Of a stretch of DNA of 64,000 nt, positions 1 through 14,027 are shown one piece after another. Made by a program: the position numbers and the translations under genes. Every line of letters starts with the position of its first letter. Position 1 is the first letter of the stretch. Below the pieces are notes generated by a model that saw only the letters and a list, made by a program, of their open reading frames with translations, searched no databases and was not told where the DNA came from. Where the stretch lies: assembly GCF_024355225.1 (NCBI RefSeq), contig NZ_VCNH01000008.1:3410001-3474000 (forward strand), given 5' to 3'. Source of the DNA: Roseovarius sp. M141 (GTDB taxonomy: Bacteria; Pseudomonadota; Alphaproteobacteria; Rhodobacterales; Rhodobacteraceae).

Positions 1-49
1 TGGCGGCGCAGGCAAAGACCGCAAGCGCGAAAGTTATCAAATATTTCAC
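1..49 (-). CDS. 5' end of a probable exported protein (cut by window edge)
   Basis: Only the first 16 codons lie in the window. A GTG start overlaps the TGA stop of the upstream small gene (GTGA arrangement). The translation is one Lys followed by a hydrophobic run ending in Ala-Cys-Ala-Ala, as in a Sec signal peptide or possibly a lipoprotein signal. The function cannot be told. The overlap suggests translational coupling with the preceding gene. Confidence 0.45.
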   Translation of the reverse strand, partial: MKYLITFALAVFACAA

Positions 50-204
50 GCGTCATCGCCTTTTTTTACCGTCGGTTGCGCATCTTTGCGCACCCGCGCC
101 TGAGCCTTGCGCCGGGCCAGATTGGCCTTTAACGCCTGCTTCAACCGATCCTCGCGCGGATTGCCCTTGGGTTTGGGCTGTTTCGGGGTGTCATCGCTGC
201 TCAT
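46..204 (-). CDS. small basic hypothetical protein, 52 aa
   Basis: A complete short reading frame from ATG to TGA. The product is highly charged and rich in Lys, Arg, Gln and Ala, with no membrane segment. The middle (about residues 17-42) could form an amphipathic basic helix, and a Pro-Lys-rich stretch lies near the N-terminus. I do not recognise a domain. Its stop overlaps the GTG of the next gene, which together with normal amino-acid composition supports it being real. Small Lys/Arg-rich proteins of this kind are common in Rhodobacterales. The role is unknown; nucleic-acid or ribosome binding would be a guess from charge alone. Confidence 0.6.
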   Translation of the reverse strand: MSSDDTPKQPKPKGNPREDRLKQALKANLARRKAQARVRKDAQPTVKKGDDA

Positions 205-286
205 TGCGCTTCTCTACATGAGGCGCGCCGACGGGTCCAGATAAGGGTTGCACGAGACGTCAGAAGCGTCTAATCAGCGCCCGATT

Positions 287-361
287 GCTGTGGTAGCTCA
301 GTGGCAGAGCACACCCTTGGTAAGGGTGAGGTCGAGAGTTCAATCCTCTCTCACAGCACCA
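287..361 (+). tRNA. tRNA-Thr (anticodon GGT)
   Basis: The cloverleaf can be read directly. The acceptor stem GCTGTGG pairs with TCACAGC (last pair G-U), and the D arm is TAGCTCAGTGGCAGAGCA. The anticodon stem CACCC/GGGTG encloses the loop TTGGTAA with anticodon GGT. The T arm carries the TTCAATC loop. Discriminator A is followed by an encoded CCA. It reads ACC threonine codons. Confidence 0.96.
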
Positions 362-500
362 GAAAACACCCACAATACAATCGCTTACGCGCAAGCCTTT
401 CGGGGCGACACGTGCGCTGTACGTGAACAAACGGTGCAGATCCCGCGGCAATCCGTAGAAAATCTTTCCTTACGTCCCGGCATTGCTCGCAATCAGGCAA

Positions 501-537
501 AGAAAAACCCCGGTGCGCTGGCGGGCGCGTCCGGGGT
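501..537 (-). terminator. rho-independent terminator after davB
   Basis: On the minus strand a stem of ACCCCGG/CCGGGGT with a nested GCGC/GCGC pairing is followed by TTTTTC. It lies 64 bases past the davB stop, so it most likely ends the lysR-davA-davB transcription unit. The 362-500 stretch between the tRNA and this hairpin holds no convincing gene. Confidence 0.8.
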
Positions 538-600
538 GTATTCAGTGGAAAAAGCGTCTCTGCTTTCGTAACACCCTATCCTGCCCTTTGGAGAAACCGA

Positions 601-2247
601 CTAGTCCGGCAGTTTGACTGGCCCCCATTCGGCATAGGCGTCACAGGGCGATGGGTTTTCGGCATGAAATCCGCCACCCAGATGGCGGATGATCCCGGCC
701 ACTGCGTTGAGGGAGGTTTGGACCGCCCCTTCGACCCAGGCAGGTGTCCAGCTGACACCATCGCCCGCCATGAAGATCCCGCGCTCCTGCGGTGGCAGGT
801 CGTCTTGCATGAAGTGGCCGAACATCCGGTGGTTATAGCGGTAATGCCCCGGCAGCGCACCTTTGAACGCGCCCAGGAAATTGGGGTCATTTTCCCAGCT
901 GACCGTGATCGGGTCGCCCAGGATATGCGACCGGATGTCAACGTCAGGGTAGATATTCGCCAGCGAGGACAGCGCCAGCTCCACGCGCTTTTCCACCGAC
1001 AGGGGCAGCACCTTGAGCGCATCGGTCATCCACGAATAGCTGAGGCAGATCACCGAGGGTTTGTCCGGCCCGTTGTCGAAAAGATAGGTGCCGCGCGTCA
1101 TGCGGTCGGTCAGCGTCATCGACATGACATCGCGGCCGGTTTTCGGGTCCTTGTCCTTCCAGAACGGGCGGTCGACCATCACGAATGTCTTGGCCGATTG
1201 CATGTAGCGGGTCCGGTCCAGCGCCATCCACAGATCGTGGGCAAATAGGGTTTCTTCGGTGTCGATCACAGTGGACAGCAGGTGGCTTTGGCAGGTGGCA
1301 AGCACGGCGTCGAATGTCTCGACCCGCTTCCATTGATCGGTGATTTCAAATTTGTCGCCCTGCCGCCGGATCCGGGTGGCTCCGGCGCGGGTGGCCCCGC
1401 CGTTCAGCTTGGACAGTGTGGTGCCCGCGGGCCAGTGGGTGATATTCTCGGCGGCATGGTCCCACAACTTGTGCGGGACCTGCGCTACCCCGCCGACCAT
1501 ATAGCGCTGATGGTCGTCACATTCGGTCACATTCACCCGCAGGATTTCCAGCATGGAGTTGGGGAAATCGGAATCCCAGCCGCCGGTGCCGAACCCGACC
1601 TGACCAAAGACTTCGCGGTGATGAAAGGACAGCGCCTGAAAGGCGTCCGATGAGGCGACGAAATCATAGAAGGTCCGCTCGTCCCATTGCTCGACGATGG
1701 GGTTCCAGATTTCCTTGATCCGGGCGTTGTCCCGGTCGCGGATCGCCTGTTTCAGCGCAGTGAAATTCGCGCCGTCCTCCAGCGCCTTGTCATAAGCCTG
1801 GGCGACTTCGTGGAACAGCGGCGGCAGGTCGGCCAGCGTTTCGGCGTAGTGGGTCTTGCCCAGCAGGTCGATTACGGTCGATCCTGCCGCCGGGGTCAGC
1901 GGATTGGGGAAAGGTTTGCTTTGGATGCCCAGCTTGTCGACATAGGTGTAAAACCCGGTGGAGGAGACGGGAAACCGCATACCGCCCAACTCCGCGATGA
2001 CGCCATCGGCCCCCTCAAAGGGTTGCGAGCGCAGGCGTCCGCCGAACTGACCGGCCTCGAACACGACCGGCCGGGCGCCAAGCTTCATAAGTTCATAGCC
2101 CGCGATGATCCCCGCCGCGCCCGAGCCGATGATCGCCACCTTGGCGCCATGGGCTGTGTCCGGCAAATGGCCCAGCCCCTTGGGGTGGGTGATCCAATCA
2201 TCGTAGGCAAAGGGAAAATCTGGCCCGAAGACAGAGACTTTATTCAT
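601..2247 (-). CDS. davB: L-lysine 2-monooxygenase (DavB-type flavin amine oxidase)
   Basis: A FAD-dependent amine oxidase family protein of 548 aa. The close pattern match (remembered, not searched) is Pseudomonas lysine 2-monooxygenase, which oxidatively decarboxylates L-lysine to 5-aminovaleramide. The N-terminal Rossmann motif GSGAAG lies near residue 41, followed by the flavin-family GGRLRSQPF segment and the C-terminal FAD/substrate block with MAGDGVSWTPAWVEGA. The length fits DavB (about 560 aa). I chose the ATG at 2247 because AAAGG lies 8 bases upstream and the start overlaps the davA stop (ATGAATAA); an ATG 30 bases further upstream is in frame but lies inside davA. Tryptophan 2-monooxygenase is the nearest alternative family. 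The adjacent nitrilase-type amidase fits the DavB-DavA sequence of reactions. Confidence 0.86.
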   Translation of the reverse strand: MNKVSVFGPDFPFAYDDWITHPKGLGHLPDTAHGAKVAIIGSGAAGIIAGYELMKLGARPVVFEAGQFGGRLRSQPFEGADGVIAELGGMRFPVSSTGFYTYVDKLGIQSKPFPNPLTPAAGSTVIDLLGKTHYAETLADLPPLFHEVAQAYDKALEDGANFTALKQAIRDRDNARIKEIWNPIVEQWDERTFYDFVASSDAFQALSFHHREVFGQVGFGTGGWDSDFPNSMLEILRVNVTECDDHQRYMVGGVAQVPHKLWDHAAENITHWPAGTTLSKLNGGATRAGATRIRRQGDKFEITDQWKRVETFDAVLATCQSHLLSTVIDTEETLFAHDLWMALDRTRYMQSAKTFVMVDRPFWKDKDPKTGRDVMSMTLTDRMTRGTYLFDNGPDKPSVICLSYSWMTDALKVLPLSVEKRVELALSSLANIYPDVDIRSHILGDPITVSWENDPNFLGAFKGALPGHYRYNHRMFGHFMQDDLPPQERGIFMAGDGVSWTPAWVEGAVQTSLNAVAGIIRHLGGGFHAENPSPCDAYAEWGPVKLPD

Positions 2248-3073
2248 GTGATGAACCTTTGGCATTGGGGCGTCCATACAGATCTGGACGGCGGTCAGTG
2301 AGGTGGTTTTGAAGCTGGCGACGGGTCGCGAGATCGGCGTGGCTTAGGTCTGCGAACAGCAGATCAGGGGCATCCTGGGGCGCGCGGGCAAGGTCGCCGC
2401 CGTCCGGGCCGCAGATACAGGACAGGCCGCCATAGGTAAAATCCGCTTCGCTGCCGACGTAGTTGGCATAGGCTAGGTAGATCGCGTTCTCTTCGGCGCG
2501 GGCCGGGACCAGCCGGGTGGCGACGCTGTCAAACGGTATCATGTTTGCGGTTGGCACAAGGATCAGATCGGCCCCTTGCAGGGCGAGGCCGCGGGCAACT
2601 TCGGGAAATTCGATATCATAGCAGATCGCAAGGCCGACGGACCAGCCGTTCAGCTCGAACACGCCGGACAGCGCCCCGCCTGCGGCGAACTGGATTCGAT
2701 CAACACCCCCATACAGATGGGTCTTGTGATAGCGATGCCGCTCAACCCCTGCCGAGTCCAGCACGATAACGCCATTGTAGGGTTCGCCTGCCCCCGGCAA
2801 GGCAAGGCCAACGACCAGCGCGATGTCATGTTTTATGGCGATGGATTTAAGCGCGTCAGTCAGGGTGTCGGCCAAAGCCGCCAGTGTTTTGCACTGGTCA
2901 GGACCGACGTTGTACCCCCCCAGTGTCATCTCGGGCGTCAGGATCAGATCTGCACCCTCGGCCCGCGCATGCTGCGCCGCTTGGTCCAGCGCGGCCAAGG
3001 CCTGCTGTGGGTCATGTAGGGGCATGGTTTGCCAAAGCGCGATCTTCAACGGTGCGTCCTTTTCGACTACCAT
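2240..3073 (-). CDS. davA: 5-aminovaleramidase (nitrilase superfamily, DavA)
   Basis: A carbon-nitrogen hydrolase of 277 aa. The catalytic triad can be read as Glu48 (TPEMTLGGYN), Lys117 (YHKTHLYG) and Cys151 (AICYDIEFPE). The expected reaction is 5-aminovaleramide + water to 5-aminovalerate + ammonia, the step after DavB. The gene overlaps davB by 8 bases, so the two are translationally coupled. The start is uncertain: the ATG at 3073 has only a weak ribosome site, whereas an in-frame TTG at codon 9 sits 7 bases after AAAAGGA and would begin the protein exactly where the family usually starts (Lys-Ile-Ala-Leu). Another amidase of the nitrilase family, such as a polyamine amidase, cannot be excluded from sequence alone. 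Confidence 0.84.
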   Translation of the reverse strand: MVVEKDAPLKIALWQTMPLHDPQQALAALDQAAQHARAEGADLILTPEMTLGGYNVGPDQCKTLAALADTLTDALKSIAIKHDIALVVGLALPGAGEPYNGVIVLDSAGVERHRYHKTHLYGGVDRIQFAAGGALSGVFELNGWSVGLAICYDIEFPEVARGLALQGADLILVPTANMIPFDSVATRLVPARAEENAIYLAYANYVGSEADFTYGGLSCICGPDGGDLARAPQDAPDLLFADLSHADLATRRQLQNHLTDRRPDLYGRPNAKGSSHE

Positions 3074-3187
3074 GCGCCGGATTTACCTGCGTTTGCAATG
3101 ACAGCCAAGGCCGCTCCGGAAAATGCCGCTATTCTTATCATCTCGAAGGCCCCGTCAGAAGAGGCGCCCGCTCGTCGCAAGAAATAT

Positions 3188-4102
3188 CTAATTCCCGTTC
3201 ACAAGACACGTCGCAAAGCGGTCTTCGACAAGCTCCAGAAACCGGCTGGCAACGCGAGAGGGCTGGCGCAAGGCGGGCAGCAGCAAATCATAGCGAAACG
3301 GCTGCTCCGGCAACAGCGGGCGTGCAGCGACGCGTCCTGCACGCGCGAAATACGTCGCCGTAACCGGCTCGATGATCGAGACGCCCGCGCCCGCCGCGAC
3401 CAACTCGCAGATTGAGGCCGACAGCTGGGCTTCGGCGACGATCCGAGGGCGGGCACCGCCTGCGGACAGGAACAGGTCGGTTTCGGATCGCGTGCCGATC
3501 TCGGCCCCGAGCGCGATGAACGGTTGCTGATCAAAATCAGCGGGTTCCAGAACGTCCTTCTGCTCCAGATCATGGCCAATCGGCAGGACCGCCAGCATAG
3601 GGGCGGTAAAGATCGGTCTGCGGATGACAGCGGGATGGTCGCTGTCCAGCGCGGCAAAGCCGAGGTCGAACTGCTGCGAACTGAGGTGCTGCAAGACGGC
3701 CTGCGAACTGCGTGTGCGCAGCGACACGGTGATGCCGGGTTCCTGAGCGATGAACTGCGCAATGACGTCCGGTAGCAGTTTCAACGCCAGCGCAGGCATT
3801 CCGGCGACCGACAGGCTGCCTTTGCGGAAATCGCGGATATCCTCAATGACGCGGGAAATTTCGGACATGCCGACGAAGGACCGTTCGACCTCTTCATATA
3901 GGGCCAGCGCCTCGGGGGTCGGCACGACCTGCCGGCCGCGCCGCTCGAACAGGTCGAACCCGGCAGCGTGCTGTAGATCGGCGATCAGCTTGCTGATCGA
4001 AGGCTGGGTCGTGCCCAGCACACCGGCTGCCGCCGTGATCTTGCCGGTTTCGATCACGGCGCGGAAGGCCTCGATCTGGCGATGGGTGAGACGCGCGAGC
4101 AT
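3188..4102 (-). CDS. LysR-type regulator, OccR/NocR-like
   Basis: A 304-aa LysR regulator. The N-terminal winged helix-turn-helix (about residues 1-62) has the typical TQPSISKLIADLQ recognition region, followed by the periplasmic-binding-like effector domain (about 90-290). The opening resembles OccR/NocR, the activators of octopine and nopaline catabolism. It is divergent from the opine-type dehydrogenase/transporter operon and lies 114 bases upstream of davA in the same direction, so it could control both arms. The start at 4102 aligns with the family N-terminus; an upstream in-frame ATG at 4144 would add 14 hydrophobic residues. The effector is unknown, but an imported opine or basic amino acid is the natural guess. 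Confidence 0.85.
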   Translation of the reverse strand: MLARLTHRQIEAFRAVIETGKITAAAGVLGTTQPSISKLIADLQHAAGFDLFERRGRQVVPTPEALALYEEVERSFVGMSEISRVIEDIRDFRKGSLSVAGMPALALKLLPDVIAQFIAQEPGITVSLRTRSSQAVLQHLSSQQFDLGFAALDSDHPAVIRRPIFTAPMLAVLPIGHDLEQKDVLEPADFDQQPFIALGAEIGTRSETDLFLSAGGARPRIVAEAQLSASICELVAAGAGVSIIEPVTATYFARAGRVAARPLLPEQPFRYDLLLPALRQPSRVASRFLELVEDRFATCLVNGN

Positions 4103-4193
4103 GGTCAATACATATCCAAAAGGAATGATTTTAATAAATATCACGATTATTCATATAAAAGAAAAGCTGCGACTTTGCCCAAGGAGGAATCGC
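4103..4193 (+). promoter_or_regulatory. divergent control region between LysR gene and dehydrogenase operon
   Basis: This 91-base stretch is strikingly AT-rich against a GC-rich background, as expected for a LysR-controlled divergent promoter. Several TA-rich blocks (around 4125-4160) could carry T-N11-A half-sites, but I cannot fix one. It ends with a near-perfect ribosome site AAGGAGGA at 4181-4188. Confidence 0.6.
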
Positions 4194-5318
4194 ATGGATC
4201 GCACGGACCCTGAAATCACCATTGTCGGCGGCGGCGTCGTCGGCCTGTCCGTGGCGCTGGGGCTGCTGTTGGCGGGCCGCAGGGTGCATGTGCTGGATGG
4301 CGCAGACAGTGACGCACGTGCGTCGCAGGGCAATTTCGGTCTTGTCTGGGGACAGGGCAAGGGGTGGAATTTCGCGCCCTACGCCAGTTGGACCAATGAC
4401 GCGCTGGCCGCGTGGCCCGATTTTGCGCGCAAGCTGGCCGATCTGTCCGGCATGGATGTGGCGCTGGATCAGTCCGGCGGTTTCGAATTCTTCACCGACG
4501 CTGCCGAGATGGATGAATTCGCAGGAATGCTGACGCAACAGCAGCGGCATCTGGGCAATCGGTTCAGCCATGAGATGCTGAGCGGCGATGATCTGCGGGG
4601 GCAGATGCCGGGTATCGGACCAGAGGTCGTCGGAGCCAGTTTCTCGCGGCTTGACGGTCATGTGAATCCGCTGCGCGTCCTGCGCGCGTTGCGGGGCGCC
4701 GTAACGGCCGCCGGCGGGCGCGTGACGATGAGTGCGCCGGTCGCAAGGATCACACCGGTGGCGGGTGGTGGATTCGACCTGTTGATGGCGGGCGGTCAAA
4801 AACACAGTGCGGACAAGGTCATCCTTTGCGCCGGACTGGGCGCGGCAAAACTGGCCGCCGAGCTTGGCTTTGCCACGCAGATACGGCCCCAGCGCGGCGA
4901 GCTGCTGATCACCGAGAAGCTGGGCGACCGGCTGCCGTTCCTGTCCAGCACGATCCGGCAGGTGGACGAAGGCGGCGTGCAGATCGGCGGAACCAAGGCC
5001 GATGCAGGTCTGGACGACAGCGAAACGCTGGACGTGATGGCCGGGCTTGCACGCCACGCGATCACCGTCTTTCCGGCTTTGGCGGACGTGCGCGTCGTGC
5101 GAGCCTGGGGCGCGCTGCGCGTCATGTCGCCTGACGGATATCCGGTCTACGCGTGCTCGGCGCGCCACCCCGGCGCCTACCTCGTCACCTGCCACAGCGG
5201 TGTCACGCTTGCCCCGCTGCATGCCTCCGTCCTCGCGGATTGGATAGAAGACACATCCGCAGCACCTGATCTGGAGGGCTTCGATGAAAATCGCTTCTCG
5301 CTTTCTGACGCCGCCTGA
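4194..5318 (+). CDS. FAD-dependent oxidoreductase (DAO family), subunit B of opine/amino-acid dehydrogenase
   Basis: A 374-aa DAO-fold flavoprotein with GGGVVG at residues 12-17. It is the catalytic-type (beta/OoxB/HcnC/LhpB-like) subunit of heterotrimeric amine dehydrogenases, which oxidise a secondary or primary amine and pass electrons through the [2Fe-2S] subunit. The ATG at 4194 was chosen because AAGGAGGA sits 5 bases upstream; the frame is open much further upstream but overlaps the lysR gene. The next gene starts 35 bases before this stop. Known members act on octopine, nopaline, hydroxyproline, glycine or D-amino acids. The transporter type and the davBA neighbour point to a basic amino-acid derivative. 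The exact substrate is inferred, not shown. Confidence 0.83.
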   Translation: MDRTDPEITIVGGGVVGLSVALGLLLAGRRVHVLDGADSDARASQGNFGLVWGQGKGWNFAPYASWTNDALAAWPDFARKLADLSGMDVALDQSGGFEFFTDAAEMDEFAGMLTQQQRHLGNRFSHEMLSGDDLRGQMPGIGPEVVGASFSRLDGHVNPLRVLRALRGAVTAAGGRVTMSAPVARITPVAGGGFDLLMAGGQKHSADKVILCAGLGAAKLAAELGFATQIRPQRGELLITEKLGDRLPFLSSTIRQVDEGGVQIGGTKADAGLDDSETLDVMAGLARHAITVFPALADVRVVRAWGALRVMSPDGYPVYACSARHPGAYLVTCHSGVTLAPLHASVLADWIEDTSAAPDLEGFDENRFSLSDAA

Positions 5319-5601
5319 GACGGGCGAGGTCGTGCAGTTTCACTATGAAGGCGAGGCGATCACGGCGCCTGCGGGACTATCGCTTGCGGCGGCTCTTTTG
5401 GCCCATTCCGGCGCATTCACGAGGCAAACGGTCAACGGGGCGCCGCGCACGGCGTTTTGCATGATGGGCGTCTGTTTCGATTGCCTGGTCGAGGTTGATG
5501 GCATGCCCAATACACAGGCCTGCATGATTCGGGTGCGCAGCGGCATGGTGGTCAAACGCCAGATGGGGCTGCGTGGACTGAGCGGGGGCAATGATGTCTG
5601 A
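5284..5601 (+). CDS. [2Fe-2S]-binding small subunit of the dehydrogenase
   Basis: A 105-aa ferredoxin-like protein of the HcnA/LhpE type. Four cysteines form the plant-type cluster site: Cys59, Cys64, Cys67 (CMMGVCFDC) and Cys80. It should carry electrons between the two flavin subunits encoded on either side. It overlaps the previous gene by 35 bases and the next by 11, so the three subunits are likely made at a fixed ratio. Confidence 0.86.
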   Translation: MKIASRFLTPPETGEVVQFHYEGEAITAPAGLSLAAALLAHSGAFTRQTVNGAPRTAFCMMGVCFDCLVEVDGMPNTQACMIRVRSGMVVKRQMGLRGLSGGNDV

Positions 5602-6985
5602 GTTTGATCTGATCATCATCGGTGCCGGTCCTGCCGGTATGTCGGCGGCTGCGACGGCGGCCAATGGCGGCCTGCATGTCTTGCTGTTGGACGAACAGCA
5701 GCAGCCCGGCGGGCAGATCTATCGCAATGTCGGCCAGAACCGGGCCTCGCGCGGGTGGCTGGGCGCGGAGTATGCGTCCGGCGCGCGACTGGTCGATGCG
5801 CTGGACCATCCCGGCGTGACGGTGCAGTCCGGCGCGACGGTCTGGCGTCTGGGCTCTGGGCCACGCGTGGTCTGGTCGCAGAATGGAGTCAGCCATATCA
5901 CGTCAGCGCCGCATGTCCTGCTGGCGGGCGGCGCACAGGAGCGGCCCGTGCCGTTTCCCGGCTGGACGCTGCCCGGTGTGATGACGGCAGGCGCCGCGCA
6001 GATCTTGATGAAGACCGCAGGGATGCTGCCGCAGGGCGCGGTGCTGGCCGGATCGGGGCCACTGCTCTATCTGGTCGCGGCGCAGATGATAGACGCCGGA
6101 TGCCCGCCCAAGGCGCTGGTCGAGACCCAGACACCGCGCATGATGCTCGCCGCCCTGCCCTATCTGCCGAAAGCCGCGTTTGCGGCAAGGGTGCTGTTGA
6201 AGGGGCTTGGCCTGATCCGAAAAATCCGCAAGGCCGGTGTGCGGCGTTACACAGCCGCCTCAGGTTTCGAAGCCACCAGCGACGCAAGCGGCGTGATCCA
6301 TTTCTCTTTCCGCTCCAAGGGCCAGCAGCAAGATCTGACCTGCGCCCTGCTGTTGACCCATCAGGGGGTGATCCCGTCAACGCATATCAGCCGTGCCGCG
6401 GGCATCACGCATGAATGGAACGCGGCGCAGGTTGCGTTTCAGCCGGTCCGCGATGTCTGGGGTGCCACCGATCAGCCCGGCCTGCACGTTGCCGGTGACG
6501 GGGCGGGCATCGGCGGCGCCGAGGCGGCCACCGCGTCCGGGGACCTCGCGGCGCTCGATATTCTGCACGCCAGCGGGCGGATCAGCGCCGATACCCGAAA
6601 CCAGCGCGCGGCAACTGCCCGCGCAATGCTGTTTCGCAGCCGCGCCATCCGCCCCTTTCTGGATGCCGCCTACCGGCCCCCGGCCGAGACCCTGTCACCG
6701 CCGGACGATACCATCATCTGCCGCTGCGAAGAGGTAACCGCCGGCGCAATCCGCCAAGGCATGCGCGAGGGCCCGCAAGGGCACCGTCAGATCAAAACAT
6801 CGTTGCGCGTTGGCATGGGGCCGTGCCAAGGTCGCATGTGTGACGCCACCGTGCGTGGAATCTTGAGCGCTGGCAAAGCATCTCGCATGGGACTGATCGC
6901 CCCGCCAAGGGCACGCTCGCCCATCAAGCCGACTAAGCTGGGCGAGATGGCAACACTGACCAACGATCAGGAGGAAACAGCATGA
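5591..6985 (+). CDS. NAD(P)/FAD-dependent oxidoreductase, subunit A (OoxA/HcnB-like)
   Basis: A 464-aa pyridine-nucleotide-disulfide-type flavoprotein. The N-terminal FAD motif GAGPAG is near residue 11 and a second nucleotide fold covers about 150-290. The C-terminal BFD-like [2Fe-2S] domain has Cys377, Cys379, Cys412 and Cys417 (CRC ... CQGRMC). This layout is that of octopine/nopaline oxidase subunit A, HcnB and hydroxyproline dehydrogenase LhpF. The start codon pair ATGATG leaves the first residue uncertain. The stop overlaps the transporter ATPase start (ATGA), tying the enzyme to import. HCN synthase has the same architecture but is not usually fused to an Occ-type transporter operon. 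Confidence 0.85.
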   Translation: MMSEFDLIIIGAGPAGMSAAATAANGGLHVLLLDEQQQPGGQIYRNVGQNRASRGWLGAEYASGARLVDALDHPGVTVQSGATVWRLGSGPRVVWSQNGVSHITSAPHVLLAGGAQERPVPFPGWTLPGVMTAGAAQILMKTAGMLPQGAVLAGSGPLLYLVAAQMIDAGCPPKALVETQTPRMMLAALPYLPKAAFAARVLLKGLGLIRKIRKAGVRRYTAASGFEATSDASGVIHFSFRSKGQQQDLTCALLLTHQGVIPSTHISRAAGITHEWNAAQVAFQPVRDVWGATDQPGLHVAGDGAGIGGAEAATASGDLAALDILHASGRISADTRNQRAATARAMLFRSRAIRPFLDAAYRPPAETLSPPDDTIICRCEEVTAGAIRQGMREGPQGHRQIKTSLRVGMGPCQGRMCDATVRGILSAGKASRMGLIAPPRARSPIKPTKLGEMATLTNDQEETA

Positions 6986-7752
6986 GCGACCCCGCAGCAC
7001 TGAAGATCGAGGACCTGCACAAGAGTTTCGGTAGCCATGAAGTCATCAAGGGCGTTTCCATGGAAGCGCAGAAAGGCGAAGTCATCGCCATCCTCGGCGC
7101 CTCGGGTTCTGGCAAAAGCACCTTCCTGCGCTGCATCAACCTGCTGGAAACGCCGAATTCCGGTGACATCTGGCTGGCCGGGGAAAAGATGCGCATGACG
7201 CAGAACCGCCATGGCGATACCGTCCCCGAGGACATCCGGCAGGTCGAGCGGATGCGTGCGCGCCTTGCCATGGTGTTCCAGGGCTTTAACCTTTGGTCCC
7301 ACATGACGGTGATGGAAAATGTGTTGGAAGGGCCGCTATACGTGCAAAAAACGCCCAAGGCCGAAGCGCGCGAAAAGGCCAAGGCCCTCTTGGCCAAGGT
7401 CGGGCTGTCGGACCGCGCCGATTACTATCCCGCGCATCTGTCCGGCGGTCAGCAACAGCGCGTCGCCATTGCGCGGGCATTGGCGATGGACCCCGATGTG
7501 ATGCTCTTTGACGAGCCGACCTCGGCGCTCGATCCCGAACTGGTGGGCGAGGTGCTGGGCGTGATGCGCGATCTGGCCGACGAGGGGCGCACGATGCTGG
7601 TCGTCACGCATGAGATGGGCTTTGCCCGTGACGTATCGACCAAGACCGTTTTCCTGCACAAGGGCGAGGTCTGCGAAGAAGGCCCGCCGTCGCAGCTGTT
7701 TTCCAACCCGCAAACCACGGAATTTCAGACGTTTCTATCGCGCATGAATTAA
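6982..7752 (+). CDS. polar amino-acid/opine ABC transporter ATPase (OccP/HisP-like)
   Basis: A 256-aa ABC ATPase. Walker A GASGSGKST is at 39-47, the signature LSGGQQQR near 153, Walker B VMLFDEPTSALD near 173, and the switch His lies in VVTHEM. A short insertion after the Q-loop side (QNRHGDTVPED) matches the HisP/OccP/ArtP subgroup for basic amino acids and opines. It overlaps the preceding oxidase gene by 4 bases and is followed by its binding protein and two permeases, making a complete importer. Confidence 0.9.
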   Translation: MSDPAALKIEDLHKSFGSHEVIKGVSMEAQKGEVIAILGASGSGKSTFLRCINLLETPNSGDIWLAGEKMRMTQNRHGDTVPEDIRQVERMRARLAMVFQGFNLWSHMTVMENVLEGPLYVQKTPKAEAREKAKALLAKVGLSDRADYYPAHLSGGQQQRVAIARALAMDPDVMLFDEPTSALDPELVGEVLGVMRDLADEGRTMLVVTHEMGFARDVSTKTVFLHKGEVCEEGPPSQLFSNPQTTEFQTFLSRMN

Positions 7753-7780
7753 CGAACCACCAACAGGAGAGAACCAAAAA

Positions 7781-8572
7781 ATGATCCGTAGAACTGTTTT
7801 GACCACTGTCGCTGCCGCCGCACTGGCCGCGATTGCCCTCCCCGCTGCCGCGCAGGACACGCTGCGCATCGCCGTCGAGGGCGCCTACCCTCCGTTTTCA
7901 GCCACGTCATCGGACGGCACGCTTGTCGGGTTCGACATTGACATCGCCAAGGCGCTTTGCGCTGAAATGCAGCGCGAATGCGAGCTGGTCCAGCAGGAGT
8001 GGGACGGCATGATCCCCGCGCTCAAGGCGCAAAAGTTCGACGCCATCGTCGCCTCCATGTCGATCACCGAAGAGCGCAAGCGCCAGATCGATTTCTCGGA
8101 CAAGTATTATCAGACACCGGCCCGTGTGGTGGCCCGCAAGGACGCCGATTTTGAGGGCACGCCCGAAGGTCTGGCGGGCAAACGCATCGGCGTTCAGCGC
8201 GGCGCGACGCACCAGTGCTATGCGGAAAAGACGTTCCCCGATGCGGAAATCATTCTTTATGGCTCGCAGGACGAAGTGTTCCGTGACCTCGCGCTGGGCC
8301 GTGTGGATGCGCAACTGTCCGACAGCCTGATCGCCAAGGAGGGTTTTCTCGATACCGATGCAGGCGTTGACTACGCCTTCCTCGGCGAAGATCATCTGGA
8401 CATCGAATGCTATGGCGAAGGCGTCGGCATCGCGGTGCGCCAGGGCGACGAGGCGCTGCGCGACGAACTGAGCGCGGCAATCCTCGCCATCCGCGAAAGC
8501 GGCGTCTACGGCGAAATCAACGACAAATATTTCGAGTTTGACATCTATGGCGGGCGTCCTGCGTCCGAATGA
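7781..8572 (+). CDS. periplasmic substrate-binding protein (OccT/ArgT-like)
   Basis: A 263-aa solute-binding protein. The signal peptide covers residues 1-24 with an Ala-Ala-Ala-Gln cleavage region, and the mature protein starts with DTLRIAVEGAYPPFS, the hallmark opening of the family 3 (polar amino acid) binding proteins. Two cysteines in the central part (QRECELVQQ and THQCYAEKT) could form a disulfide in the periplasm. The ribosome site AGGAGAG is 13 bases upstream. Ligand: most likely a basic amino acid or its opine, inferred from OccT/ArgT similarity and the neighbours. Confidence 0.9.
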   Translation: MIRRTVLTTVAAAALAAIALPAAAQDTLRIAVEGAYPPFSATSSDGTLVGFDIDIAKALCAEMQRECELVQQEWDGMIPALKAQKFDAIVASMSITEERKRQIDFSDKYYQTPARVVARKDADFEGTPEGLAGKRIGVQRGATHQCYAEKTFPDAEIILYGSQDEVFRDLALGRVDAQLSDSLIAKEGFLDTDAGVDYAFLGEDHLDIECYGEGVGIAVRQGDEALRDELSAAILAIRESGVYGEINDKYFEFDIYGGRPASE

Positions 8573-8593
8573 TCTGACTGGCATCGAACAACC

Positions 8594-8620
8594 GTCAGGG
8601 CGGCACCCCGTCGCCCTGAC
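8594..8620 (+). promoter_or_regulatory. intercistronic hairpin between binding protein and permeases
   Basis: A perfect 9-bp inverted repeat GTCAGGGCG/CGCCCTGAC with a 9-base loop lies in the only sizeable gap of the operon. It has no T-run. Its place is typical of 3' hairpins that protect the abundant binding-protein mRNA and lower permease expression. Confidence 0.6.
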
Positions 8621-8640
8621 CCGCAACCGGGAGACGCCTG

Positions 8641-9333
8641 ATGGACCTGATACTGGAATACCAATCCCAGTTGATTGACGGAACGCTCATGACGATCAAG
8701 CTGGCGCTGACGTCCCTTGTCATCGCGCTGTTGTTCGGGCTGCTGGGCGCCTGGGCGAAACTGTCCTCCAGCCGTCTGGCGCGGCGTCTGGCCGGGCTGT
8801 ACACGACCATCGTGCGCGGCGTGCCCGACCTCGTGCTGATCCTGCTGGTTTTTTACGGCGGTCAGGTGACGCTGAACAATATCGGCGTGATGACCGGCCT
8901 GTGGGGCTATATCGAGGTCAGCCAGTTTGCTGCCGGTGCCTGCACCATTGGCGTGATTTTCGGCGCCTATTTCACCGAAACGTTCCGGGGGTCGATCATG
9001 GCCATCCCGCGCGGCCAAATCGAAGCAGGGATCAGCTGCGGCATGTCCAGAACGCTGATTTTCCGCCACATCATCTGGCCCCAGATGGTGCGCTATGCGT
9101 TGCCGGGTTTTACCAACAACTGGCTGGTGCAACTCAAGACGACGGCGCTGGTTTCGGTCATCGGCCTTCAGGATCTGGTCTATAACGCGTTCACCGCAGG
9201 CCGCTCCACGGGCCAGCTGTTCACCTTCATGGCGGCGGCTTTTGTCATCTATCTGATGCTGACCGCCGTTTCGGATGTTTTGCTGCGCGCGCTTGAGCGG
9301 CACTACAGCCGCGGCGTGGTGAGGGCTGGATGA
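8641..9333 (+). CDS. ABC transporter permease (HisQ/OccQ-like)
   Basis: A 230-aa inner-membrane permease with about five hydrophobic segments. The cytoplasmic EAA loop reads IEAGISCGMSRTLIFRHIIWP, matching the ATPase-contact motif of the HisMQ family. The second permease gene starts within its stop codon (ATGATGG), so the two subunits form the membrane heterodimer of the importer. Confidence 0.89.
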   Translation: MDLILEYQSQLIDGTLMTIKLALTSLVIALLFGLLGAWAKLSSSRLARRLAGLYTTIVRGVPDLVLILLVFYGGQVTLNNIGVMTGLWGYIEVSQFAAGACTIGVIFGAYFTETFRGSIMAIPRGQIEAGISCGMSRTLIFRHIIWPQMVRYALPGFTNNWLVQLKTTALVSVIGLQDLVYNAFTAGRSTGQLFTFMAAAFVIYLMLTAVSDVLLRALERHYSRGVVRAG

Positions 9334-10091
9334 TGGAAAATATACTGTCCTATATCCCGCTCGATATCGCGCTGATCGCCGAGAATTTTGACCGTTTCCT
9401 ATATGGTGTGTGGATCACGCTGAACCTGACGTTTCTGGCGCTGCTGCTGGGTGGGCTGATCGCGATTCCCATGGCGATCGCGCGCGCATCCAGGCACCCT
9501 GTCTTCAACCCGCTGGTACAGGGCTACACCTATGTCTTTCGCGGCACGCCGCTGCTGGTCCAGACCTATCTGATCTATTACGGCGTCGGGCAGTTCGATG
9601 TCATCCGCAACAGCTTTCTGTGGGATCCGATCCTGTCTTCGGCATGGTGGTGCGCGTTGATCGCGTTCACCCTCAATACGGCGGCCTACACGACCGAGCT
9701 GCTGCGCGGTTCCATCGCCGACACCCCAACCGGCGAGGTCGAGGCAGCCATCGCCACCGGCCATTCCTACCGCAGCCGCATGCGCCGGATCATCCTGCCC
9801 TCGGCCTTCCGACGGGCGATCCCGGCCTATTCCAATGAGGTCATCTTCATGCTGCACGGGTCGGTCATCGCCAGCACGATCACGCTTCAGGATATCCTTG
9901 GGGTCGGGCGCTGGCTGAACGGGCGCTACTATCTGGCCTATGAGGGGTTCATCACGGCGGCGGTGCTCTATTTCCTGATCGTTCTGTGCATCACATGGGC
10001 CTTCCGCTGGTTCGAGCGCCGCTATCTGCGCCATCTGGTCCGCCGCACCGAGGAGGTGAAGCCTGATATCGCCCCCACCCCCGTCACCTGA
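9330..10091 (+). CDS. ABC transporter permease (HisM/OccM-like)
   Basis: A 253-aa permease, the partner of the preceding one. Hydrophobic segments are near residues 25-50, 55-80, 90-115 and 195-225. The EAA loop reads VEAAIATGHSYRSRMRRIILP. The start is either of two adjacent ATG codons. It is the last gene of the operon that begins with the DAO-family oxidoreductase. Confidence 0.89.
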   Translation: MMENILSYIPLDIALIAENFDRFLYGVWITLNLTFLALLLGGLIAIPMAIARASRHPVFNPLVQGYTYVFRGTPLLVQTYLIYYGVGQFDVIRNSFLWDPILSSAWWCALIAFTLNTAAYTTELLRGSIADTPTGEVEAAIATGHSYRSRMRRIILPSAFRRAIPAYSNEVIFMLHGSVIASTITLQDILGVGRWLNGRYYLAYEGFITAAVLYFLIVLCITWAFRWFERRYLRHLVRRTEEVKPDIAPTPVT

Positions 10092-10149
10092 AGCGAGATT
10101 CAGATAGCGCATTTTTGCTCAGCTACAGGGTCCGTCTGAAGCGTTGCGA

Positions 10150-10656
10150 ATGGATGCCCTCGTGTTTTGGAGAATGACAAAAACCTTGCTGATCCTTCCG
10201 GGGACCGCGCTGATCTACGTCCCGCTTGTGATCCACTGGCTTGGCGACCGTTGGCCGTTTGGCCCCATGGACGGGACGGGTATTCAATGGGTCTTGGCCG
10301 TAATACTGGCCATACCCGCACTTGTTCTGGCCGTCAGGACGATGGTCCTGTTCACGCGCGAAGGCCAAGGGACCCCGGCGCCATGGGACCCACCCCGGAA
10401 ATTTGTCGTGACTGGACCCTACCGATACATGCGCAACCCGATGCTTTTGTCCGTCATTCTCATGATCCTCGCAGAAGCTTTGGCGCTGGGTAGCCTTCTG
10501 CTCCTTGGCTGGGCGGTGGCCTTCTTTCTTCTCAACACAGTCTATTTCGCTGTCAAAGAAGAACCGGATCTGGAGCGGCGCTTTGGCGAGGATTACCTGC
10601 GTTACAAGGCGAACGTGCCGCGATGGGTTCCTCTTTTGCAGCCCTACGACTCCTAG
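10150..10656 (+). CDS. isoprenylcysteine carboxyl-methyltransferase-family membrane protein
   Basis: A 168-aa integral membrane protein with four predicted helices (about 8-28, 42-62, 98-120 and 122-140). The segment GTPAPWDPPRKFVVTGPYRYMRNPM, followed by EEPDLERRFGEDYLRY, is the SAM-binding signature of the ICMT/PEMT-like family. The substrate is unknown; bacterial members methylate lipids or prenyl compounds, or are uncharacterised. The start is uncertain: an ATG at 10174 follows GGAGA too closely, and a TTG at 10144 is also in frame. It is not obviously linked to the transporter operon 58 bases upstream. Confidence 0.75.
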   Translation: MDALVFWRMTKTLLILPGTALIYVPLVIHWLGDRWPFGPMDGTGIQWVLAVILAIPALVLAVRTMVLFTREGQGTPAPWDPPRKFVVTGPYRYMRNPMLLSVILMILAEALALGSLLLLGWAVAFFLLNTVYFAVKEEPDLERRFGEDYLRYKANVPRWVPLLQPYDS

Positions 10657-10788
10657 AGCAGCGACAGATGGCTACTTGCGATGGCTCAAATGTTGCGCGG
10701 CTTGTGAATGACGGCAGGGCGGACACAGCGCCGCGTCATCGGATATCAGAAATACGGTCGTCGTGATTTAGTCCTACGACGCCCTCAA

Positions 10789-10811
10789 GGCGGGGCATCC
10801 TGTGCCCCGCC
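10789..10811 (-). terminator. stem-loop between convergent genes
   Basis: The 9-bp perfect inverted repeat GGCGGGGCA/TGCCCCGCC has a 5-base loop. It lies 34 bases after the EF-hand gene stop. There is no T-run, so it may act as a processing or rho-associated end rather than an intrinsic terminator. The 10657-10788 stretch holds nothing else I can name. Confidence 0.5.
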
Positions 10812-10844
10812 CCCAGCGTCGAATCAGCTGCGGTCGCCACCTTT

Positions 10845-11396
10845 TCAGTCTTTGCGTGAGCCGCCCTTGTGACCATGCCCGCGGCCGTGGTCCTCCATCG
10901 ATAGCGCGCCATCGCCGTTGCGATCCATCCGCTCGACCAACCCGCCAAAGCGGTTGTCCATCTCCTCGTCGCTGATCGTGCCGTCGCCATCCGCGTCAAG
11001 GCGCTGGAACGCACGGACCATCTTCGTGCGGGTCAGATCGCGGTAGACCGTGTCGAACTCCTCGATGCTGAGCCCGCCATCGCCGTCGGCATCCGCCGCC
11101 GTGACCTGTGCTGCGCGGAAGGTGTCGACCTCATCCTGGGTAACTTTGCCGTCCCCATTGCCGTCCATCCGCTGGAACATCTGCTGCATCATCTCAGACT
11201 TGCCACGTCCGCCATAGCCGTGTCCGCGACCATGTGAGCGATGCCCGTTGGATGCAGCTTTGGTCACTTGGGCGGAAGCCGCCGGGGTGCCACTTGCGTC
11301 CTGTGCGGGCGCGGTCTGCGCAGTCGCAATCGCGGTTCCCGCTGTCAGGGCAATGGCGGCGGCGAAAAGAACGGGGAGGGAGTTTGTCGGTTTCAT
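10845..11396 (-). CDS. secreted EF-hand calcium-binding protein
   Basis: A 183-aa exported protein. The signal peptide ends around residue 27 (ATAQTAP), a low-complexity Ala/Gln/Thr linker follows, then four EF-hand loops of DxDxDG type: MDGNGDGKVTQDE, ADADGDGGLSIEE, LDADGDGTISDEE and MDRNGDGALSMED. The tail is Gly/His/Lys-rich. It should bind Ca2+ in the periplasm or outside. I chose ATG 11396 because AAAGGT lies upstream at good spacing; an upstream in-frame start would spoil the signal peptide. It is downstream of, and in the same direction as, the histidine kinase gene, so it may be its output or its ligand sensor. Confidence 0.82.
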   Translation of the reverse strand: MKPTNSLPVLFAAAIALTAGTAIATAQTAPAQDASGTPAASAQVTKAASNGHRSHGRGHGYGGRGKSEMMQQMFQRMDGNGDGKVTQDEVDTFRAAQVTAADADGDGGLSIEEFDTVYRDLTRTKMVRAFQRLDADGDGTISDEEMDNRFGGLVERMDRNGDGALSMEDHGRGHGHKGGSRKD

Positions 11397-11423
11397 TTCA
11401 AGACCTTTCTTTGTGTTCCTCAA

Positions 11424-11441
11424 AAGGGGCCAGCGCCCCTT
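11424..11441 (-). promoter_or_regulatory. hairpin in the EF-hand gene leader
   Basis: AAGGGGC/GCCCCTT with a 4-base loop, followed on the minus strand by TTTTGAGG, lies 28 bases upstream of the EF-hand ATG. It could be a weak terminator for the histidine kinase transcript, an attenuator, or an operator. Confidence 0.45.
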
Positions 11442-11506
11442 GACCTCAACTTAGGTGCTAATCGCACATTATGTGTGTCAGCGGGCCAGTCGATTTGTCG
11501 TCAGTC

Positions 11507-11539
11507 GTCGCAAGCCTTCATTCTGATACAGCTTGCGAC
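11507..11539. promoter_or_regulatory. 9-bp inverted repeat between kinase and EF-hand gene
   Basis: GTCGCAAGC and GCTTGCGAC form a perfect inverted repeat separated by 15 bases. It lies between the kinase stop and the EF-hand leader. As DNA it could be a regulator site (half-sites about 24 bases centre to centre); as RNA it is a hairpin. The sequence does not decide. Confidence 0.45.
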
Positions 11540-11617
11540 AAACTCGGCATCGGATGGCCGGTCCGGGCACCGAACATGCCCGCGCAGGGCCACCCTACAG
11601 CCGTTGCCATGCCCAAT

Positions 11618-12982
11618 TCAGGCCGATCTCTGCAACGGCAGAGTTACTGTCGCGCGCAGTCCACCTTCAACGCGATTTTCAAGCATGATCTGGCCACCGT
11701 GCGCGATAATGGTCGTGCGCGCGATCGAAAGGCCCAGGCCCGCACCGCCGGTGTCCAGGTTACGGCTGTCATCGCCCCGGGTAAACGGCTGGAACATGGC
11801 ATCCAGATGATCTGTCGGGATGCCGGGACCAGTGTCCTCGATCGTGACGATGGCATGTCGCGCGTCCTGCGATAGCGTAACCGTCGCTTCGCCGCCGTAG
11901 CGTATGGCGTTGTCGATGAGGTTGCCGATAGCCCGGCCAAGGGCTACGGGGCGGCCCGTCACTTGGACTTTTGCATCGGCACTGAATGTCACGGCGCGAT
12001 CATCGCAAAGATGTCTAATCAACGCGCCCAGTTCGACCGGCTTCACCTCCTCTGCGTCCCGTCCCTCTTTTGCATATCTGACAAGGCCATCGGCCATCAC
12101 GGTCATCGCGTCCAGTGTGCGTACCATCGCGTCGCGCAGGTCCGAATCGTCGACCATTTCGGCACGGATGCGCAGGCTGGTCATCGGCGTGCGCAGATCA
12201 TGGCCCACAGCGGCAAACATGCGCATCCGCTCGGCGTCAAACTGCGATATCTCGGCCTGCATCGCGTTAAAGGCGCGCGCCGCGTCGCGCATTTCCCGCG
12301 GACCTTCTTCGGGTACCCGCGCGGTGCGGTCGCCGCGCCCGGCTGCCTCGGCGGCGTGGGACAGCCGGCCCAGTGGTTTCGTCAACAGGCGGGCAACGGC
12401 GATGGCAACGCCAAGCACGCAGAGCAGCGACAGGGCAAGAACGATCAGAATCGACTTGCCGTCGACATGGCGGGGGCGGGGTGGCGCGCCGCTGATCACA
12501 ACGTTGAGCCATTGGGCCTGTCCGCCCTGCGCGACAAGCGGCGCGGTGATGCCGATGAACCCGCCCGTTCGCCCCCCATGCCGCCGGTCAGAGGCACCCG
12601 CCCGATGCGGACGCTCGATAGTGCCCACTGTCACATCGTCACGTTTCAGCGTTTCGGCAAGCCGCGCCGCGATGTATTGGGACCGGGTGTCCGTGCCGAT
12701 TTCGCGCAGCAACGGGGTCTTTCCCACCCTCACCCGCGCAAAACGAGACGACGCCTCCCGCGCAATCACCCGCCGGGCCCGTGCATCGACAGCCTCCATC
12801 GCGGAAATAAGGTCCACGACACGCTCAATCACGCGGTCTTCGGTGGCTTGCCGACCAAAGCGCCGCTGTTCAAAATTGAGGACAACCAGTGCAATCGCGT
12901 TGGCGACGAGCAAAGCGATCGCCAGCAGCAGGACAATGCGCCCTGCCAGCGCATCGGGAAGAAGACGTCTGAGCCGATTCAT
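11618..12982 (-). CDS. sensor histidine kinase (EnvZ-type)
   Basis: A 454-aa inner-membrane kinase. TM1 is about 15-37, a periplasmic sensor region 38-176, TM2 about 177-200, then HAMP. The dimerisation domain has phospho-acceptor His261 (GHDLRTPMTSL), and the ATPase domain shows NLIDNAIRYG, DTGPGIP and GAGLGLSIA. The start ATG overlaps the response-regulator stop (TGATG), so the pair is co-translated. The periplasmic part is Arg-rich with an RRHGGRTGG stretch; the signal is unknown. The downstream calcium-binding gene makes a divalent-cation signal conceivable but unproven. Confidence 0.88.
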   Translation of the reverse strand: MNRLRRLLPDALAGRIVLLLAIALLVANAIALVVLNFEQRRFGRQATEDRVIERVVDLISAMEAVDARARRVIAREASSRFARVRVGKTPLLREIGTDTRSQYIAARLAETLKRDDVTVGTIERPHRAGASDRRHGGRTGGFIGITAPLVAQGGQAQWLNVVISGAPPRPRHVDGKSILIVLALSLLCVLGVAIAVARLLTKPLGRLSHAAEAAGRGDRTARVPEEGPREMRDAARAFNAMQAEISQFDAERMRMFAAVGHDLRTPMTSLRIRAEMVDDSDLRDAMVRTLDAMTVMADGLVRYAKEGRDAEEVKPVELGALIRHLCDDRAVTFSADAKVQVTGRPVALGRAIGNLIDNAIRYGGEATVTLSQDARHAIVTIEDTGPGIPTDHLDAMFQPFTRGDDSRNLDTGGAGLGLSIARTTIIAHGGQIMLENRVEGGLRATVTLPLQRSA

Positions 12983-13701: not shown

Positions 13702-14027
13702 GATTGTTCTCCTCCGGCGATGTCCGGTTTTCGCTATCCTGAATAGCGTCGTTTTCCGCAGAAATAATAGCAACAGGCGGGCCATTCGGGGAAAGATAAG
13801 TGTCGCAAAATGTATCAAGCGGCCGCGGCGATGCGCACCGTGATAGTCCGGCGTCGGTGCTGAAAAAACCCTCCCGCAGTTGGCCCCGAAAGTGGCATGC
13901 AGGGCAGTGAACGCCTCAGGGAAAGCCTGCCGAATCCGAAAAAATCGCAACTGTCTTGGAACCGATCTGCACCGCGTCAGTTGTGTGCCCAGAGCGAAGA
14001 ACAGTAATGCAAACAAGGAGTACCAAG
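13702..14027. promoter_or_regulatory. divergent intergenic region (response regulator / PRC-barrel gene)
   Basis: This stretch has no gene that I can support. It contains a 6-bp hairpin CGCTAT/ATAGCG at 13732-13748 in the regulator leader and must contain both divergent promoters. AAGGAG at 14015-14020 is the ribosome site for the plus-strand gene. No operator of a known family is recognisable. Confidence 0.5.

What the first reader, a model, noticed from the sequence alone, without database searches (positions are those of the whole stretch)
601..10091. Two-armed island: opine-type oxidase and importer next to lysine monooxygenase/amidase
Seen: a LysR gene with davA-davB behind it, divergent from a DAO flavoprotein, [2Fe-2S] protein, BFD-type flavoprotein and a complete OccP/T/Q/M-like importer in one tight operon. 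Known: OccR-type regulators, Occ importers and OoxAB-type oxidases handle octopine-like opines, and DavB/DavA turn lysine into 5-aminovalerate. Inference: the island imports a lysine conjugate (lysopine-type opine, carboxymethyl-lysine, or D-/N-substituted lysine), cleaves it to lysine plus an oxoacid, and degrades the lysine through DavBA. I do not know this complete combination as a described system. Marine animals make opines as fermentation products, so such substrates exist in the habitat.
Basis: partly seen in the sequence, partly recalled or inferred. Interest (0 to 1): 0.78.

Follow-up and report, generated by a model that had tools for sequence, protein, structure and literature searches.

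The report
Opine-uptake operon joined to lysine breakdown
A few Roseovarius-type marine bacteria carry a ten-gene unit in which an importer and flavin dehydrogenase of the kind used to eat opines (amino acids linked to a keto acid) stand next to lysine-degrading genes, where relatives have arginine-degrading genes; it is a new arrangement of known parts, and its exact food is not yet shown.

Summary
The right arm (dao, [2Fe-2S], BFD flavoprotein, ABC P-T-Q-M, divergent LysR) has the gene order of flavin opine dehydrogenase (OdhB-C-A) plus an Occ-like importer. Of 15 such arms examined, five run on into RidA and arginase (four with an unbroken OCD), the content of an annotated Agrobacterium occ operon. 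Four, all in the window's genus, carry davA-davB behind LysR instead; none has both. The four davBA copies share no predicted flanking protein, so the ten genes look like a unit. The binding-pocket residues hardly change, so importer and dehydrogenase probably act first, on an N-substituted basic L-amino acid, and the freed amino acid is the branch point. DavB keeps all ten contacts of a Lys/Orn/Arg enzyme; one 91%-identical davB elsewhere lies among glutarate-type genes, which mildly favours lysine. Outside the genus davB occurred without the arm in every locus examined. New variant of a known kind.

The parts
601..2277 (-). davB-like L-lysine (Lys/Orn/Arg) 2-monooxygenase / oxidase
   Evidence: 890 bits to 3we0; ten contact and control residues of L-AAO/MOG conserved
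2240..3073 (-). davA-like omega-amidase (CN_hydrolase), overlaps davB
   Evidence: PF00795 136 bits; no NCBIfam model over cut-off; a davA homolog lies beside davB on the same strand in 24 of 38 davB loci
3188..4102 (-). LysR-type regulator, co-directional with davA-davB (114 bp gap), divergent from the operon
   Evidence: PF00126 + PF03466; ATG at 4102; 74-91% homologs in 11 other arms, 61-63% in two Paracoccus arms (annotated as only 201 bp in L153), none found in L135
4103..4193 (.). divergent control region with blocks conserved in dav-linked and arginase-linked arms (putative LysR operator)
   Evidence: alignment of 13 of 15 intergenic regions, L135 and L153 left out; operator not proven
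4194..5318 (+). OdhB-like catalytic beta subunit (DAO family, GGGVVG and RAW motifs)
   Evidence: PF01266 185 bits; 39-40% to OoxB/NoxB; motifs
5284..5601 (+). OdhC-like [2Fe-2S] gamma subunit (C-x4-C-x2-C-x12-C)
   Evidence: PF13510 93 bits; overlaps dao; motif
5591..6985 (+). OdhA-like alpha subunit (FAD domain + BFD [2Fe-2S] domain)
   Evidence: PF07992, PF04324; 39% to NoxA and 43% to OoxA
6982..7752 (+). ABC importer ATPase (OccP/HisP type)
   Evidence: NF007908 360 bits, below cut-off 466; 60% to the OccP homolog of L195
7781..8572 (+). periplasmic binding protein, LAO/OccT family
8641..9333 (+). importer permease Q
   Evidence: PF00528
9330..10091 (+). importer permease M
   Evidence: PF00528
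287..361 (+). tRNA-Thr flanking the block on the davB side (not part of it; none found in the compared flanks of the other three copies)

Best explanation
A LysR-controlled catabolic cassette for octopine-family opines (Nalpha-substituted basic L-amino acids). The ABC importer brings the opine in; the OdhB-C-A flavin dehydrogenase oxidises the secondary amine, and the imine hydrolyses to a keto acid and a free basic L-amino acid. In this Roseovarius-type lineage DavB then oxidatively decarboxylates that amino acid to the omega-amino amide and DavA hydrolyses the amide. Lysine (to 5-aminovalerate) is the most likely main amino acid, with ornithine and arginine as possible extra ones. Shown: gene content, order, families, unit behaviour, exchange of end modules, conserved DavB contacts. 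Inferred: substrate, regulation, flux.
For: Subunit order of OpnDH and most of its motifs (PMC4575208). Orthologous arms followed by RidA-arginase in 5 of 15 arms, with OCD unbroken in 4 (L141, L142, L153, L154) and in two frames in 1 (L152): the gene content of an annotated occ operon with OoxB, OoxA, OccT, OccP, OccM (L195). davBA in 4 of 15, none with both. No shared predicted flanking protein. Binding-protein signature the same at 14 of 16 positions in all 15 arms. DavB residues kept, 10 of 10. A davBA with davB 91% and davA 65% identical (L013) lies beside a transaminase over the TIGR00700 cut-off, a succinate-glutarate CoA-transferase homolog and an acyl-CoA dehydrogenase; a homolog of at least one of the three lies in 7 of 38 davB loci, L013 included.
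Against: The binding protein is nearest free cationic-amino-acid binders and keeps Ser72 and Asp161, which hold the amino group in LAO. It meets neither the OccJ nor the NocT keto-acid signature. OpnDH homologs of similar divergence may act on other amines: the 43-50% TRAP-linked group has no arginase (0 of 9). Of the five closest no-arm davB loci (L010-L014, 89-93%), only L013 has all three glutarate-type genes, L011 has a CoA-transferase piece at its edge, and L010, L012 and L014 have none of the three; neighbours scanned in L010 and L014 were other genes. In L013 the CoA-transferase and acyl-CoA dehydrogenase are below their curated cut-offs. No CsiD in the own genome; glutaryl-CoA dehydrogenase and davT/davD were not sought genome-wide. 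No biochemistry.
Confidence: 0.6

Rival explanations
1. The substrate is an arginine or ornithine opine, as in the arginase-linked relatives, and DavBA here works as an arginine/ornithine 2-monooxygenase plus 4-guanidinobutanamide (or 4-aminobutanamide) amidase; lysine is not the point.
For: Importer pocket almost unchanged from arginase-linked arms; L-AAO/MOG as monooxygenase takes Orn (kcat/Km 200) and Arg (24) as well as Lys (74; at another pH) (PMC5832979 passages); the own genome has five ureohydrolases over the agmatinase cut-off TIGR01230, some of which might take 4-guanidinobutyrate (inference); three of the five closest no-arm davB loci show no glutarate-type gene.
Against: One close davBA without the arm (L013) sits in a glutarate-type neighbourhood; the own genome already has an unlinked arginase and OCD, so arginine needs no new route.
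Confidence: 0.22
2. The importer takes up free or D-form basic amino acids (D-Lys, D-Arg) or a side-chain-modified lysine such as carboxymethyl-lysine, and the flavin enzyme deaminates or deconjugates it.
For: Binding protein nearest LAO-type proteins, with Ser72 and Asp161 kept; RidA, an imine-handling family, follows 8 of 15 arms.
Against: D-Arg oxidation gives the keto acid, which arginase and OCD (both over cut-off in L141) cannot use; none of the ten genes is a racemase or transaminase by family. Nothing in the calls tests side-chain conjugates.
Confidence: 0.1
3. The trimer is a heteromeric L-proline or D-hydroxyproline dehydrogenase; in arginase/OCD arms it oxidises the proline made by OCD.
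For: Same superfamily (PMC4575208); OCD makes proline.
Against: The dao subunit stays at 83-90% in arms that have davBA and no OCD, so it acts before the branch; the second OdhB copies of L196 and L149 (24-28% to the window; that they are the type-2/ProDH-like kind is my inference) fall far outside the arm in the tree. No proline dehydrogenase reference was in the tree.
Confidence: 0.04
4. davBA and the arm are neighbours by chance and work on unrelated substrates.
For: davB without the arm in 36 of 38 loci and the arm without davBA in 11 of 15.
Against: Same ten-gene order in four genomes with no shared predicted flanking protein; davBA stands where others have a basic-amino-acid module (arginase/OCD) in the unit; lysR-davA-davB co-directional with a 114 bp gap.
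Confidence: 0.04

Closest known systems
octopine catabolic (occ) operon, e.g. Agrobacterium leguminum pAtCFBP4996a (L195)
   Same: Divergent LysR, ABC importer, OoxB-[2Fe-2S]-OoxA trimer; orthologous Rhodobacterales arms also have RidA, arginase, OCD
   Different: Importer genes lie after the trimer in order P-T-Q-M (there Q-M-P-T before it); OdhB 39% and OdhA 43% identical; RidA-arginase-OCD missing here and davA-davB present
flavin-containing opine dehydrogenase OdhBCA (Watanabe 2015, PMC4575208)
   Same: B-C-A gene order, overlapping genes, nucleotide-binding, R-x-W and gamma [2Fe-2S] motifs
   Different: A separate clade, about as far from OoxB and NoxB as these are from each other; substrate untested; P. 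putida and Bradyrhizobium proteins themselves were not compared
lysine 2-monooxygenase/5-aminovaleramidase (DavBA), with L-AAO/MOG 3we0
   Same: 890-bit match, ten of ten contact and control residues; davA overlaps davB
   Different: Linked to an opine arm; elsewhere davB lies among other genes, in some loci glutarate-type genes or ABC peptide importers
nopaline (nox) region, pAtK84b (L194)
   Same: noxB, a [2Fe-2S] homolog (36%), noxA, arginase, OCD
   Different: NAD-type opine dehydrogenase gene in the cluster, no davBA, dao 40% and bfd 39-42% identity

Membership tests
flavin opine dehydrogenase (OdhBCA) | Tandem overlapping genes in order beta-gamma-alpha | tested here: met
   4194-5318, 5284-5601, 5591-6985 overlap
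flavin opine dehydrogenase (OdhBCA) | GxGxxG in beta and alpha, R-x-W in beta, C-x4-C-x2-C-x11/12-C in gamma | tested here: met
   read from translations
flavin opine dehydrogenase (OdhBCA) | C-x-C-x15-20-C-x4-C in alpha, as the paper prints it | tested here: inconclusive
   here C-x-C-x32-C-x4-C; Fer2_BFD domain found; the printed spacing was not checked against sequences
flavin opine dehydrogenase (OdhBCA) | Clusters with OoxB/NoxB (type 1) | tested here: inconclusive
   39-40% to both, which are 38% to each other; own clade; branch supports not printed; PpOdhB, BjOdhB and ProDH not in the tree
flavin opine dehydrogenase (OdhBCA) | Dehydrogenase activity on octopine or nopaline | not testable with these tools
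   needs enzyme
Occ/Noc opine importer | ATPase + family-3 binding protein + two permeases with the trimer | tested here: met
Occ/Noc opine importer | OccJ keto-acid signature S91-N111-T163-A164-N202 | tested here: not met
   here S-A-T-H-D, 2 of 5; the paper found N202 not critical
Occ/Noc opine importer | NocT signature G97-M117-H170-S207 | tested here: not met
   here S-A-H-D, 1 of 4
Occ/Noc opine importer | E, W, A, Q at LAO positions 11, 52, 69, 117 in place of LAO D, F, S, L | tested here: inconclusive
   all four in window, but own paralog L186 and L012 have the same four and L185 three of four, so not specific
Lysine 2-monooxygenase (L-AAO/MOG type) | R102 W235 D238 C254 Q258 Y416 W418 F473 A515 W516 | tested here: met
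   10 of 10 (numbering = chain minus 20)
5-aminovaleramidase DavA | A curated model naming DavA | tested here: inconclusive
   CN_hydrolase only; no NCBIfam model over cut-off
occ-type operon | Arginase and OCD in the unit | tested here: not met
   no hit in window 1-14000; unlinked copies at C8:2054670-2057487
occ-type operon | OccR-like LysR that senses the opine | not tested
   LysR present (40% to that of L195) and control region conserved; ligand untested

The most novel reading that the evidence does not exclude
A dedicated lysopine-type pathway: a bacterial operon, not described in the papers I searched, that imports a lysine opine, frees lysine with an OdhBCA dehydrogenase and sends it to 5-aminovalerate, arisen by exchange of the arginase-OCD end of an octopine operon for DavBA, in marine bacteria that may feed on animal-derived opines.
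Probability: 0.33. Interest if true: 0.6.

Novelty: new variant of a known kind. Interest (0 to 1): 0.46.

Why it matters
The characterised cases that I read about are Agrobacterium, Pseudomonas putida and Bradyrhizobium. Here an occ-type operon appears in several Rhodobacterales genera, with a natural exchange of its end module, which makes substrate use directly testable: nearly the same importer and dehydrogenase, two different ends. If lysopine-type compounds prove to be the food, it points to an overlooked nitrogen-rich substrate in the sea. If not, the exchange still tells which part of the operon sets the branch point.

Tried and rejected
Binding-pocket argument: the window protein first looked opine-like at positions 11, 52, 69, 117 and 122, but own-genome paralogs and the L012 protein share most of these, so I do not use it as proof.

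A wide davBA-arm link across the family: rejected. The arm is beside davB in 2 of 38 loci, and in family samples of 394 genomes (with only 3 and 5 first-look candidates scored in most genomes) the window's genome alone is in both the davB list (18) and the dao list (48).

CsiD in own genome: none. A five-protein tblastn of L013 neighbours against the fetched own-genome stretches (window and ten loci, not the genome) found only the CoA-transferase and weak matches of 33% and 24%.

Literature (open-licence PMC only; listings unless said): (opine + aminovalerate) 1 paper, on N-methylanthranilate production, 10 of 32 listed, none of the ten holds lysopine or opine oxidase, 0 papers; others (5 of 5; 15 of 147; 15 of 22; 15 of 10,369, too broad; 15 of 176; 10 of 10) listed nothing that I recognised as this system. 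The text of PMC10745273 has 0 occurrences of lysopine, arginase, RidA and lysine. No structure prediction was run, since it would not settle Lys versus Arg.

Rows and duplicates: L133 and L009, L136 and L021, L013 and G203, L030 and G376 are taken as the same contigs from equal contig lengths; each was counted once within a count. Left out before counting arms: L143 (no importer match) and L144 (6.4 kb contig), both 58-60% dao. L140 ends about 3 kb past the arm; L016 has about 5 kb on the davA side. The neighbourhoods of the five 70-73% davB genes of the genus (L163-L167) were not fetched in full; the dao search of the same 84 genomes shows no arm ortholog there (best 40%, in G474).
Full report
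Observation. The ten genes are present at 601-10091 as described, and the family assignments hold. DavB matches the solved L-amino acid oxidase/monooxygenase 3we0 at 890 bits over 546 residues. The dao, [2Fe-2S] and BFD genes overlap in the order of OdhB-C-A. The likely starts are LysR 4102 and dao 4194. The binding protein is nearest cationic-amino-acid binding proteins by sequence. The genus is called Roseovarius here because two same-genus contigs carry that name (L009, L021); the window's genome itself is unnamed.

What the arm is. PMC4575208 (parts 1, 3, 4 and 5 of 6 read) describes OdhB-C-A as an alpha4beta4gamma4 dehydrogenase with 2 FAD, FMN and [2Fe-2S], acting on nopaline or octopine; it says that freed arginine may go through arginase and OCD. 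The window trimer has the gene order and three of the four motif sets; the alpha cysteine spacing is 32, where the paper prints 15-20. In a tree (midpoint root, supports not printed) its OdhB and OdhA fall in a clade of their own with other Rhodobacterales arms; the window OdhB is 40% identical to NoxB (L194) and 39% to OoxB (L195), which are 38% identical to each other.

The arm elsewhere. I searched the window's genus (84 genomes) and a family sample (394 genomes) for dao, and plasmid records by tblastn (308 records, three of at least 60%), and fetched the listed matches of at least 58% and those three plasmid loci. Fifteen loci carry the full dao-[2Fe-2S]-BFD-P-T-Q-M arm: window, L132-L142, L152-L154. 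Of these, 5 continue into RidA and arginase, with OCD unbroken in 4 and in two frames in L152; 3 have RidA only (L137-L139); 3 have none of these (L134, L135, L140); and 4 have davBA behind LysR and none of these (window, L132, L133, L136). None has both davBA and arginase. In L141 arginase (298 bits, cut-off 228) and OCD (585, cut-off 350) pass their curated cut-offs. An annotated Agrobacterium occ operon (L195) has the same content: LysR, four importer genes, OoxB, [2Fe-2S], OoxA, RidA, arginase, OCD.

Linkage of davBA and arm. In the genus davB occurs in 9 of 84 genomes: the four of at least 92% identity are all in the ten-gene block; the other five (70-73%) are in genomes without an arm ortholog. 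Over 38 davB loci with neighbourhoods (22 named; 16 fetched), the arm is next to davB in 2, L009 and L021. In the four block genomes no predicted protein of 100 aa or more is shared in the compared flanks (3.8-6.6 kb a side in the three relatives, 9.9 and 14.6 kb for the window). So the block is a real but lineage-limited unit. In the trees it nests among arms with RidA or arginase, with the Paracoccus arginase-OCD arms outside, so the davBA form is probably derived. In the dao tree two arms without davBA (L134, L135) fall inside the davBA group, while in the BFD-subunit tree they are its sister; loss or independent gain is possible.

Which amino acid. For lysine: DavB keeps the ten contact and control residues named in PMC5832979 (passages; alignment). 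L013 (davB 91%, davA 65%) lies with a transaminase over the TIGR00700 cut-off (549 against 507), a succinate-glutarate CoA-transferase homolog (509 bits, below its cut-off 750) and an acyl-CoA dehydrogenase (no model over cut-off). One or more homologs of these three lie in 7 of 38 davB loci, L013 included, some of them weak (37-47%) or partial; the own genome has a 60% CoA-transferase homolog elsewhere. Against: L010, L012 and L014, as close as L013 or nearly so, have none of the three. Against a lysine-only reading: the same residues accept ornithine and arginine, and the importer signature is the same at 14 of 16 positions in all 15 arms whatever the end module; position 69 differs in L153 and position 120 in four arms. 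Opine systems can be broad: OccJ binds lysopine at 0.14 uM and octopinic acid at 0.017 uM (PMC5740067, passages), and PpOpnDH and BjOpnDH2 were inhibited by Arg, Orn and Lys. A broad octopine-family arm whose end module was exchanged fits all of this.

Limits of the pocket evidence. The window binding protein has E, W, A and Q at LAO positions 11, 52, 69 and 117, as in OccJ and NocT, but so do the own-genome paralog L186 and L012, and L185 has three of four. It fails both published keto-acid signatures (2 of 5, 1 of 4). It also keeps Asp161 and Ser72, which hold the free amino group in LAO; the paper reports that OccJ-N202D still binds octopine and that LAO-Q122A gains weak octopine binding. 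This is inconclusive.

Why not D-amino acids or proline. Arginase and OCD use L-arginine and L-ornithine, so the dehydrogenase of those arms should free an L-amino acid (inference from pathway knowledge). The dehydrogenase persists in davBA arms without OCD, so it most likely acts before the branch and not on proline.

Regulation. Thirteen of 15 lysR-dao intergenic regions were aligned and show conserved blocks in dav-linked and arginase-linked arms, suggesting one operator; davA starts 114 bp behind lysR. That davBA is under the same control is inference.

Novelty. My paper searches (open-licence PMC only, mostly capped listings) showed no description of davBA joined to an opine operon. The parts are known; the combination is a new variant.

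Noticed in passing
L145 (own genome C8:406000-425900), L146, L147, L148, L151, L155, L156, L158, L159: A second group of OdhBCA-like trimers (OdhB 43-50% to the arm) sits behind a TRAP importer, with LysR; RidA follows in 7 of 9 and arginase in 0 of 9. Sixteen Leisingera plasmid records match the dao query, two of them opened. Substrate unknown; perhaps non-basic opines such as those of marine animals.
   Followed up: partly
L135 (G447): No LysR match; the arm is preceded by five co-directional reading frames including an ABC-type ATPase (34%); that it is a polyamine-type importer is a guess.
   Followed up: no
L152 13134-14185 (Leisingera caerulea plasmid): OCD homology in two overlapping pieces in different frames (86% and 92%), no listed CDS: probably a frameshifted gene behind arginase.
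   Followed up: partly
L153 8605-8805 (Paracoccus aminovorans plasmid): The LysR gene beside the arm is annotated as only 201 bp and lies next to an IS21 element, so it may be cut short.
   Followed up: no
L012 (Rhodobacterales MAG): davBA in the same locus as a different LAO-type ABC importer (ATPase 64%, binding protein 51%), without the dehydrogenase trimer.
   Followed up: partly
L196 (Azospirillum brasilense p3): B1-C-A-B2 arrangement with two OdhB-like genes and two RidA genes, like the B1-C-A-B2 cluster described for Bradyrhizobium.
   Followed up: no
window 287-361: tRNA-Thr directly beside the davB end of the block; none found in the compared flanks of the other three copies.
   Followed up: partly
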